Shown: in pieces, positions 22,917 through 35,142 of the stretch | How the letters are laid out: the number at the start of each line of letters is the position of its first letter | Position numbering within the stretch: position 1 is the stretch's first letter | Source of the DNA: a bacterium | Lineage (GTDB): Bacteria > Myxococcota_A > UBA796 > GCA-2862545 | Assembly (NCBI GenBank): GCA_030424555.1 | Contig: JAUHWK010000002.1 | Span: 1-35,142, forward strand | Length of the DNA: 35,142 bases | Reading direction: 5' to 3' | The notes under the pieces: model-generated | What the model was told of the DNA's origin: nothing | The model's input: only the letters and a program-made list of their open reading frames with translations | Database searches by the model: none | Made by a program: the position numbers and the translations under genes

Positions 22917-25900
22917 TCAGCCCAGTCGCTCCCGGCGCCTCCGGTACGCGAGCATCAGAAGTGCCAAGACTCCGTAAGTTTCCGGCGTCATCGGGCCCTG
23001 GTTGCACCCACCACCACCGCCCTGAAGACGCTGCGGGACCAGGGGATCCAGACCCAATTCGTCCTCGACGCCGTCGGGGATTCCGTCGCCATCCGTGTCC
23101 GGGTTGAGCGGATCGGTGCCCAGCTCCAGCTCCCGACAGTCCGTCAGGCCGTCCTGATCGGCGTCCGCGGTCTCCCCGGCACACGCGTCCGTGTCGATCC
23201 CGCGGTCGGTGTCGGTGTCCCCGTCGGTGTCGGTGTCGGTGTCGGTGTCGACCGGGCCGATGCCCGTGTCGATCCCGGTGTCGTCCGTGTCCCCGGTGTC
23301 GACGTCCGTGTCGTCCGTGTCGACATCCGTGTCCGTGTCCGTGTCGACCGGATCCTTCACGTCGATCGACACCACCGCCGTGTCCGTCTTCCCGGCCGCG
23401 TCCGTCACCGTGTAGGTGAACGTGTCCGACCCGACGAACCCAGCCGACGGCGTGTACGTCACCGTGCCATCGCCGTTCACCGACACCGTGCCGTTCGTCG
23501 GGCCATCGCCCGCCTCGACCGTCACCGTCAGCGGACCACCCTCCGGGTCCACGTCGTTGGACAGCACGTCCACGTCCACCGGCGTGTCCGAGAACGTCTC
23601 CGCCTCGTCGTCCGTCGCCACCGGCGCGCTGTTCTCCGGAGGCTGCGCGGCACACTGAGGCGTCGCCGGCGGGTACGACACCACCACCGACACCGTCGGG
23701 TTCACCGTGATCTCCACCGTCGCCGTCGGGCGCGTGTCCTCGTACCCATCCGACGCTTCCGTCCACACGCCACCCGCGAACACCCAGCCCGGCCAGTCGA
23801 TCGGATCGTTGTTCCCGTCGACCTCCGCACCAGGCCACAGCAGCGTCCCAGACGCCGGCAGCCCCGTCTCCGTCTGGACCTCGGTGTTCAGGCTGTCCAG
23901 CCACACCACGTCCACCGGGTTCGACGCCATCGTGAAGTTCGCCGTCACCACGTAGTCCACGTACGGCGTGTCGTTGTCGCAACGAGACGTCGCCTCGATC
24001 TCGATCGCGCGAGGCACCACCGTCAGCGTCAGCGTCGAGGTGTCGCAGTTCGACGGACGCGCCGCCTCACACACCTCGATCTCCACCGTGTACGTCCCCT
24101 CCGGCGTGTCCGCGGGGATCGCCAGCGACCCATCCGGCGTCACCGTCGGGCAACTCAGCCCCGCGTCCGTGTCCGACGCGTCGCTGTCGCTGTCGGAATC
24201 CGAGTCCGAGTCGCTGTCGGAATCCGAGTCCGAGTCGCTGTCGGAATCCGAGTCCAAGTCGCTGTCGGAATCCGAGTCCGAGTCGCTGTCGGAATCCGAG
24301 TCCGTGTCCGTGTCCGTGTCGACCGGCTCGGGCGCCGTGTCGCAGCCCACCACCGTGATCGACGCCGCCGTCGGATCGAGCGGCTGGCCACCCAGGGTGT
24401 CGTTGTCGAGGACCGGCACCTCGTTGTCCGGCTCCCCGAACGTGACCGTCGCCTCGTCGTCCGTCGCCGCCACCGAGCCCTGGCCCACGTCGACCGTGAT
24501 CGTCGCCTCGTCGCAGTTGCCCGCGTTGAGGTCCTCACACAGTCGGTAGGTGAGGACGTAGGTGTCGGGGAGGGTGCCCGCAGGGACCAGCAGGATGTCG
24601 CTGGCGTCGAACGCCGCGCCGGTCAGCCCGCCGTCGGTCAGCAGGGTGACCGTGACGTCCCCCGCCGAGGCCGGATCGCCGCCCACCGTGTCGTTGGCGA
24701 GAACCAGCACGAAGCCACCGCTCGCGCCCGACCCGATGGTCGCCGTGTCGTCCGCGGCCAGCACCTCGGCCGCGCCGACCTCGATCGTGACCGTGGAGGT
24801 GTCGCAGTTGAGCGGGTTGCGCACCTCGCACACCTCGACCGTCACCGTGTACTCGCCCGCCGGCGTGCCCGGCGGCACGACCACGCCGCAGTCCGCGTCG
24901 ATCGCCACGCCCGTGAGCGTGCCGTCATCGGTGACCGCGCCCATCAGCTCACCATCCACCGACGGCGTGCCGTCGAGGGTGTCGTTGGCGCAGACGTCCC
25001 CGACGGTTCCGCCCTCGTCGCCGTCCGGACCGTCGACCTCGTCGTCGATGGCCGCGAGGATCGGGGGCTCGACCGTGACGGTGACGGTGCCCACGACGCA
25101 GTTGCCGGGGTTGAGGTCCTCGCACACGCGGTACTCGACCGCGTACTCGCCCGCGGGCGTGTTCGGCGGGACGGTCACGGTGCCGGCCGGGTCGATGGTG
25201 ACGCCGATCAGGCCGTCGTCATCCTCGATGGAGACGGTGACGTCGTCGGGGTCGATCGGGTCGCCGTCCAGGGTGTCGTTGTCGAGGGTGCCCTCGATGG
25301 TGCCCCCCGCACGGCCCGAGTCGATCGTCCCGGTGTCGTCGCCGGCGACCAGCGCGCCGGGGCCCACCTGCAGGGTGACCGTGGTGCTGCGGCAGTTGGT
25401 CGGGTTGAGGACCTCGCACACCTCGTAGGTGAGGGCGTAGTCGCCAGCCGGCGTGCCTGCGGGGACCGTGATCCGGCCGTCCGCGTCCATCGTGGCCCCA
25501 GGCAGCGCCGCGGTGTCCGTCAGCGCGACCGACACGTCTGCCGGGTCGACGAAGTCGCTGTCGAGGACGTCGTTGTCGAGCACACTGTCGGTGGTGGTGC
25601 CGCCCGCCGTTCCGCTCGGGATCGGTAGGGTGTCCCGCACCGCGACCAGCCCGCCCGAGCCCACGTCGACCGCGATCTCCGCGGTGGCGCAGTTGGTCGG
25701 GTTGAGGACCTCACACACCTCGTAGGTGACGGTGTAGGTGCCCGACGGCGTGCCCGGCGGAACCACCAACGCGCCCGCCGCGGTCACGGAGACCCCCGTG
25801 AGGCCCCCATCGTCCGCCACGCCTGCGGTCACGGCCGAGGAGTCGACCAGGGCCCCATCGATGGTGTCGTTCGCGAACAGCCCCGGCACGGTCGCCCCCG

Positions 25901-34900: not shown

Positions 34901-35142
34901 GGCCGCCGCGGAAGCCGAGGCCCCGCACGTCGATGTTGCCTTCCTGCGACCCGGAGAAGTTCTCGCCCTCTGGCGCAAACTCCTCTGCATCGAAGGCCAC
35001 GATGCCGCCGGTCTCGCCATCCCATGGCACACCGGTCACGAAGTCGTTTCGGTCGATGGTGAAGGTGCCGTACTGGGGCACGCGCACGGCCTGGAAGGTT
35101 CGGTAGCCGAGCTGCCCGCTGACCGAGCGCGCGTTGACGTAG
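22917..35142 (-). CDS. Giant repetitive surface protein, 5' end outside the window
   Basis: At least 4,074 residues; the frame is still open at 35142, so the start and export signal are not seen. Order of regions: a Gly-rich part (about 35000-34070) with [30 protein letters not shown] and [13 protein letters not shown], suggestive of a beta-helix; TSP3 calcium repeats (about 34060-32790; [23 protein letters not shown]); 29 tandem Ig-like units (32777-24010), each with an ANDTLDG start and C-E-x-L-N-x-x-N-C pair; a beta domain ([20 protein letters not shown]); one cadherin-like unit ([30 protein letters not shown]); an Asp/Thr tail; a TSP3 unit; then GGGGGCNQG, a hydrophobic segment and RRRRER. 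The repeat type is known from giant Bacteroidota adhesins. Likely a long calcium-dependent, disulfide-braced surface fibre or adhesin. Confidence 0.9.
24184..24303 (-). repeat. 24-bp minisatellite, five copies, coding (Asp-Ser)4
   Basis: Copies start at 24184, 24208, 24232, 24256 and 24280. Four start G-A/A-G-TCGCTGTCGG; the one at 24256 has a single change giving Leu in place of Ser. It is followed by GTGTCC copies. It lies inside Ig-like unit 29, between two cysteines. Confidence 0.85.
30263..30326. repeat. 64-bp exact repeat, copy 1
   Basis: Identical base for base to 30911-30974. In the protein it covers the end of one strand and the [16 protein letters not shown] loop of unit 9. Confidence 0.85.
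30911..30974. repeat. 64-bp exact repeat, copy 2 (in chimeric unit 7)
   Basis: Same 64 bp as 30263-30326, here inside unit 7, where it is followed by a second, different start of a unit ([12 protein letters not shown]). The result is an 18-residue in-frame insert. Confidence 0.85.

What the first reader, a model, noticed from the sequence alone, without database searches (positions are those of the whole stretch)
22917..35142. Giant (at least 4,074 residues) multi-module surface protein
One open frame spans a third of the window and runs off its end. It combines a Gly-rich region, a calcium-binding TSP3 region, 29 cysteine-paired Ig-like units, a cadherin-like unit and a sorting-like tail. 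The repeat type is known to me mainly from Bacteroidota adhesins, so its presence here with a Myxococcota-type tail suggests either an old shared family or transfer.
Basis: partly seen in the sequence, partly recalled or inferred. Interest (0 to 1): 0.72.

Follow-up and report, generated by a model that had tools for sequence, protein, structure and literature searches.

The report
Long-stalked surface adhesin with borrowed stalk
This is a very large protein that probably holds a binding head far out from the cell surface; its head and anchor belong to the bacterium's own family, but its stalk of 29 repeated folded units appears to have been acquired from unrelated bacteria, in place of the calcium-binding stalk its relatives use.

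Summary
One minus-strand frame (22917..35141) encodes at least 4,074 residues: Gly-rich head, TSP3 region, 29 Cys-paired ~98-residue units, one Big_9/cadherin-like unit, TSP3 and a sorting-like tail. It runs off the contig end; a relative suggests ~200 N-terminal residues are missing.

The neighbourhood explains it. The next gene (19073..22840) carries four of the same units, an unrelated FG-GAP head and a paralogous tail. A TraB-like barrel/OmpA gene follows. Relatives in the same family carry homologous heads on long TSP3 stalks with MYXO-CTERM tails, and adhesins paired with or fused to the barrel/OmpA protein.

The unit was not found in 70 other genomes of the class, and only three weak matches came from 378 of the phylum. 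All 32 intact window units form one clade; the closest units found are from Kangiella, Tabrizicola and Microbacterium, not Bacteroidota. AlphaFold gives a confident cadherin/Rib-like beta-sandwich (pLDDT about 98). No Pfam or NCBIfam model recognises the unit.

Best reading: a head-stalk-anchor adhesin whose stalk was replaced or extended by a horizontally acquired, then amplified, array. Transfer and lipid anchoring are inferred; adhesion is untested. New variant of a known kind.

The parts
22917..35141 (-). Giant surface protein gene (P0001), 4,074 aa, 5' end cut by the contig end
34077..35141 (-). Gly-rich head (residues 1-355), N-terminus missing
   Evidence: 45% and 42% identical to heads of two proteins of a same-family genome (L153, L154)
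32793..34076 (-). TSP3 (calcium-binding type) region, residues 356-783
   Evidence: PF18884
24480..32792 (-). Units 1-28 of the ~98-residue Cys-paired beta-sandwich array (unit 7 carries a partial internal duplication)
24009..24479 (-). Unit 29, interrupted by an SD/TD-rich insert
24153..24341 (-). SD/TD-rich insert between two extra cysteines (C3600, C3664) inside unit 29
   Evidence: resembles the SD region of MSCRAMM proteins in composition only
23364..23633 (-). Big_9 / cadherin-like unit (residues 3837-3926)
   Evidence: PF17963, PF17892, PF17803 over cut-off; NF012211 below cut-off
23025..23363 (-). DT-rich linker and terminal TSP3 (residues 3927-4039), within the segment paralogous to the downstream gene
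   Evidence: 61% identity over 114 aa with the end of P0002
22920..23024 (-). Sorting-like tail: GGGGGC, hydrophobic stretch, RRRR
   Evidence: sequence; not matched by TIGR03901 or TIGR03382
19073..22840 (-). Downstream gene with paralogous tail (P0002): FG-GAP head, TSP3, 4 of the same units, DT linker, TSP3, MYXO-CTERM tail
19601..20767 (-). Four units (Q1-Q4) of the same family in P0002
19082..19159 (-). MYXO-CTERM tail of P0002
   Evidence: TIGR03382, 17.4 bits, over cut-off 15.85
16994..18823 (-). TraB-like outer-membrane protein (P0003): signal peptide, barrel-like N-terminal region, Asp-rich repeats, OmpA domain (ORF extends to 19021)
   Evidence: PF00691; best NCBIfam match NF033763 TraB 162 bits, cut-off 700; start chosen by the signal peptide

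Best explanation
The gene encodes a head-stalk-anchor surface adhesin of MYXO-CTERM type. The protein would be exported by Sec (signal peptide lies beyond the contig end; inferred from the relative L154), held by its C-terminal hydrophobic tail, modified at the tail cysteine and cut by the myxosortase homologue, and moved to the outer surface by type II secretion (a pathway worked out in M. xanthus, partly as a model there, and not tested here). The 29 disulfide-pinned beta-sandwich units act mainly as a long spacer that presents the Gly-rich head far from the cell, with TSP3 regions as calcium-binding joints. The neighbouring FG-GAP protein is a short-stalk partner with a different head on a paralogous stalk and anchor, and the TraB-like barrel/OmpA protein ties the complex to the cell wall. 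In evolution, a founder unit entered this lineage from an unrelated bacterium, was amplified, and replaced or extended the TSP3 stalk that relatives use with homologous heads. Shown: anatomy, head homology, paralogous tails, no match to the unit in sampled relatives, single clade, confident fold. Inferred: export route, lipid anchor, spacer function, adhesion, transfer.
For: Anatomy. Same-family proteins with homologous heads carry TSP3 stalks and MYXO-CTERM-like tails: Gly-rich head in L154, FG-GAP head in L156. Unit not found in 70 other class members, 32 of them high quality, and only 3 weak matches among 378 phylum members. All 32 window units one clade (support 0.855); wider clade with Kangiella, Tabrizicola and Microbacterium units 0.957. 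Contig belongs to this genome: its DnaE2 is closest to same-family genomes, 56-66% for full-length matches, against 54% or less for full-length matches outside the family. P0001 and P0002 share tail (61% over 114 aa) and pre-array region (48% over 153 positions) but not heads. MYXO-CTERM system: 18 tails over cut-off, MrtX homologue 133.6 bits. Barrel/OmpA partner adjacent here and paired or fused with adhesins in relatives L158, L159, L160, as in MXAN_5598 (PMC11980579). Fold: pLDDT 98.2 for two units, 97.5 for one; PDB matches to cadherin and Rib domains. Codon use matches the host, so acquisition is not recent.
Against: The giant's own tail does not match the MYXO-CTERM profiles, and the MrtX homologue is below its curated cut-off. 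No N-terminal signal was seen; its contig was not found in the bin. The spacer role of the units is by analogy; some could bind ligands. Absence in relatives could also reflect loss. The outside units were gathered with patterns drawn from the window's own units, so the true closest source may be unsampled. The phylum search scored at most 13 candidates per genome.
Confidence: 0.68

Rival explanations
1. The unit family is old in the phylum and was kept here but lost, or changed beyond recognition, in the relatives; no transfer occurred.
For: Cys-bearing Big_9-type repeats with a C-to-C loop exist in other families of the phylum (sequences); codon use is native.
Against: Not found in 70 class members; the phylum matches are weak (best 2.6e-7) and look like ordinary Big_9 repeats; the closest units found lie in other phyla.
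Confidence: 0.17
2. The units are themselves the binding surface (multivalent ligand or self-binding, as in cadherins), not mainly a spacer.
For: Unit fold resembles cadherin domains; units are diverse (27-77% identical), which would allow different specificities.
Against: Fold similarity to cadherins is general for such sandwiches (TM 0.6-0.7, 10-24% identity); relatives carry homologous heads on unrelated TSP3 stalks, which points to an exchangeable spacer.
Confidence: 0.15
3. The three genes form a TraAB-like recognition and outer-membrane exchange system.
For: Adhesins with MYXO-CTERM-type tails next to a barrel/OmpA gene whose best NCBIfam match is TraB; the same combination is fused in relatives and in MXAN_5598 (PMC11980579).
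Against: TraB match is 162 bits against a cut-off of 700, and its best stretch lies in the C-terminal half; neither head matched a PA14 domain and no TIGR04201 repeat was matched; variable alleles were not tested.
Confidence: 0.12
4. Assembly or binning artefact: the array is misassembled or the contig is foreign to the MAG.
For: A 64-bp exact repeat is shared by units 7 and 9 and unit 7 looks hybrid; contig ends inside the gene.
Against: DnaE2 and both head domains point to this family; units are too different to be collapsed copies; a second gene on the contig has the same units.
Confidence: 0.05

Closest known systems
TraA/TraB of Myxococcus xanthus (outer-membrane exchange adhesin)
   Same: Head, repeated stalk, MYXO-CTERM-type tail, with a barrel/OmpA gene downstream (PMC3325183, PMC6626042)
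   Different: Heads are Gly-rich and FG-GAP, not PA14; stalk is beta-sandwich units, not Cys-rich TIGR04201 repeats; TraB match far below the curated cut-off
MXAN_5598 (large adhesin + internal MYXO-CTERM + barrel/OmpA, fused)
   Same: Same order of modules; relatives L158 and L160 show the fused form (PMC11980579)
   Different: Here the parts are three separate genes and the stalk is the acquired array
Big_9 / tandem-95 / cadherin-like repeat adhesins
   Same: Same kind of beta-sandwich repeat; a true Big_9 unit stands near the array
   Different: The 98-residue unit has an invariant Cys pair near its end and reaches no Pfam or NCBIfam cut-off on its own
Giant arrays of the same unit in Pseudoxanthomonas, Polaromonas, Kangiella, Capnocytophaga and Flavobacterium
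   Same: Same unit, up to 32 copies in one frame
   Different: Other heads and anchors (for example OmpA-type ends in Kangiella)

Membership tests
MYXO-CTERM surface proteins | Cysteine motif, hydrophobic helix, Arg-rich end at the C-terminus | tested here: met
   GGGGGC...RRRR in P0001 by sequence
MYXO-CTERM surface proteins | Match to TIGR03901 or TIGR03382 over cut-off | tested here: not met
   Not met for P0001; P0002 is over the TIGR03382 cut-off
MYXO-CTERM surface proteins | Myxosortase in the same genome | tested here: inconclusive
   MrtX homologue over positions 6-233 of 238, 133.6 bits, below the cut-off of 180, as in all relatives searched
MYXO-CTERM surface proteins | N-terminal signal peptide | not testable with these tools
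   Start lies beyond the contig end; relative L154 has a signal-like start
TraA | PA14-type variable head and TIGR04201 Cys-rich repeats | tested here: not met
   No such match among Pfam and NCBIfam hits, though the first ~200 residues are missing
TraB (for P0003) | NF033763 over cut-off 700 | tested here: not met
   162.3 bits, best of 39 families
Big_9 / tandem-95 repeats | Units match PF17963 or NF012211 | tested here: inconclusive
   Weak E-values in 5 of 31 units (PF17963) and 1 of 31 (NF012211); profile comparison with the true Big_9 unit gives only 6% probability, E 0.006
Cadherins | Sequence-level homology, not only fold | tested here: not met
   No PDB chain found with the single-unit profile at E<=1; similarity is by fold only
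Bacteroidota adhesins | Closest units are from Bacteroidota | tested here: not met
   Nearest units found: Microbacterium, Kangiella, Tabrizicola

The most novel reading that the evidence does not exclude
Stalks in this class of adhesin are freely exchangeable parts: a foreign repeat was slotted between native heads and native anchors in two neighbouring genes, and the trio with the TraB-like barrel forms a long-reach contact or recognition system that differs from TraAB.
Probability: 0.22. Interest if true: 0.65.

Novelty: new variant of a known kind. Interest (0 to 1): 0.43.

Why it matters
It is a case where head, stalk and anchor of a surface protein can be traced separately: head and anchor native, stalk apparently foreign. 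That makes the question 'is the stalk only a spacer?' testable by swapping. It also points to a widely spread, unnamed repeat unit that deserves a family model, and to a recurring adhesin + TraB-like barrel locus in this lineage.

Tried and rejected
Searching public genomes with the full 31-unit alignment failed for lack of a conserved stretch; a 4-unit subset worked. No relatives of one unit in viral contigs or plasmids. No PDB relative of the single-unit profile by sequence; the two-unit profile gave one weak match, bacillolysin, E 0.066. Looked for the missing N-terminus in the bin with the contig end and with the relative's N-terminus: nothing usable. Staphylococcal SdrC/ClfB matches come only from the SD-rich stretch and were rejected as homology. 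PADLOC ZorB matches to P0003 reflect the OmpA/MotB domain only. Papers on MtsC/MtsD were not found in the library. CopC and NPCBM_assoc matches are partial sandwich cross-hits.

Full report
What is there. The window is a complete contig of a 4.4-Mb MAG in 715 contigs. On the minus strand one frame runs from the contig end at 35141 to a stop at 22917. Codon-position GC (0.69/0.52/0.94) is that of a real gene here. In order it encodes a Gly-rich head, TSP3 repeats, 29 units of about 98 residues each with one Cys pair, a short unassigned part, one Big_9/cadherin-like unit, a DT-rich linker, TSP3 and a sorting-like tail. Unit 29 carries an SD/TD-rich insert between two extra cysteines. Unit 7 carries a partial duplicate that shares 64 exact bases with unit 9.

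The unit. Invariant positions over 31 units are D7, G17, N26, D27, P63, Y71, C78 and C86. No Pfam or NCBIfam model recognises it above cut-off on its own and no solved structure is found with the single-unit profile by sequence. AlphaFold gives 98.2 mean pLDDT for two units and 97.5 for one: a beta sandwich with cadherin and Rib domains as nearest solved folds. 'Ig-like' is acceptable in the broad sense; 'cadherin/Rib-like' is closer. The two cysteines (78, 86) sit at the two ends of the loop between the last two predicted strands (69-79 and 86-95), so a hairpin disulfide is likely (inference).

The neighbours. Sixty-one bases downstream of the giant gene's stop begins an ORF (ATG at 22840) with an FG-GAP head, TSP3, four of the same units, DT linker, TSP3 and a MYXO-CTERM tail over the TIGR03382 cut-off. 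The two genes share their tail (61% over 114 aa) and the segment before the array (48% over 153 positions) but not their heads. Unit Q4 pairs with U27 (support 0.98; both have an extra Cys pair) and Q1 with U19 (0.86), so the arrays share ancestry after amplification began. Next comes a barrel/OmpA protein whose best NCBIfam match is TraB, well below the curated cut-off. The simple scans found no consensus promoter and one weak terminator-like site, about what chance gives, so an operon is plausible but not shown.

Relatives. In the same family, proteins with homologous Gly-rich heads exist (45% and 42%). One of them, L154, has a signal-like start, the head, then a long TSP3 array and a MYXO-CTERM-like tail. 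By its layout the window protein lacks about 207 N-terminal residues; by the other, L153, up to 475. For the FG-GAP head, L156 shows the head, a TSP3 array of roughly 1,500 residues and a MYXO-CTERM-like tail. Neither relative has the Ig-like units. Barrel/OmpA genes stand next to (L159, twice) or fused to (L158, L160) MYXO-CTERM adhesins in relatives, an arrangement described for MXAN_5598 and compared there with TraAB (PMC11980579). TraA is a head-repeat-MYXO-CTERM receptor and TraB a barrel/OmpA partner (PMC3325183, PMC6626042).

Where the unit comes from. No match in 70 other genomes of the class; three genomes with weak matches in 378 of the phylum, of which those inspected read as ordinary Big_9 repeats with cysteines. 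Public genomes gave 35 loci in Flavobacterium, Capnocytophaga and other Bacteroidota, Kangiella, Pseudoxanthomonas and Lysobacter, Polaromonas, Comamonas, Tabrizicola and other Alphaproteobacteria, Microbacterium and Acidobacteria, with arrays of up to 32 units. In a tree with 349 outside units the 32 intact window units are one clade (0.855), inside a clade with Microbacterium, Kangiella and Tabrizicola units (0.957). Arrays in many other loci are not single clades, so this is not a trivial result of repeats. The contig is native: DnaE2 is closest to same-family genomes. Codon use is native as well, so the event is not recent. Units differ strongly (mean 48% aa identity; median dN/dS 0.70 by a simple count), so there is no recent homogenisation.

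How it most likely works. A secreted protein anchored by its tail on the outer surface presents a Gly-rich head on a stalk of 29 units. At about 4 nm per unit (general knowledge of such domains) the array alone could reach 100 nm or more. The FG-GAP neighbour is a short version with another head. The barrel/OmpA protein may link the complex to the cell wall as TraB does. Heads, tails and partners are native; the stalk is acquired. Export, lipid anchoring, adhesion and partner binding are inferred from homologues and were not tested.

Lineage. Myxococcota is inferred from 18 MYXO-CTERM tails over cut-off, a MrtX homologue, the TraB-like gene and CglD-like matches in relatives.

Noticed in passing
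L158:11595-16124 and L160:11218-16344: Single frames that join an adhesin, TSP3 repeats, an internal MYXO-CTERM-like segment and a barrel (with OmpA in L160; L158 is cut by the contig end), like MXAN_5598.
   Followed up: partly
L159 (G001 C5:56000-74000): Two tandem pairs of TSP3/MYXO-CTERM-like protein followed by a barrel/OmpA protein.
   Followed up: partly
L033, L034, L035: Pseudoxanthomonas proteins (frames of 3,600-4,200 residues) with 32 units of the same family; no curated model covers the unit.
   Followed up: partly
L042, L044, L050, L025: Arrays of the unit spread over successive frames, suggesting frameshifts or decayed genes.
   Followed up: no
window 30911-30974 and 30263-30326: 64-bp exact repeat between units 7 and 9; unit 7 looks like a hybrid. 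Recombination or a local assembly fault.
   Followed up: partly
window 22899-22910: Perfect 12-bp palindrome AGGTTGCAACCT just after the giant gene's stop codon.
   Followed up: no
window 11398-14022 (-) and 9910-11349 (-): A further FG-GAP protein and, next to it, a protein with a lipoprotein-like start and no Pfam match.
   Followed up: no
window 5636-5939: Tandem repeats of 9-42 bases, similar in composition to the DT/SD linkers of the surface proteins.
   Followed up: no
window 6253-9330 (-): DNA polymerase III alpha-type (DnaE2-like) gene, used here to check that the contig belongs to the genome.
   Followed up: yes
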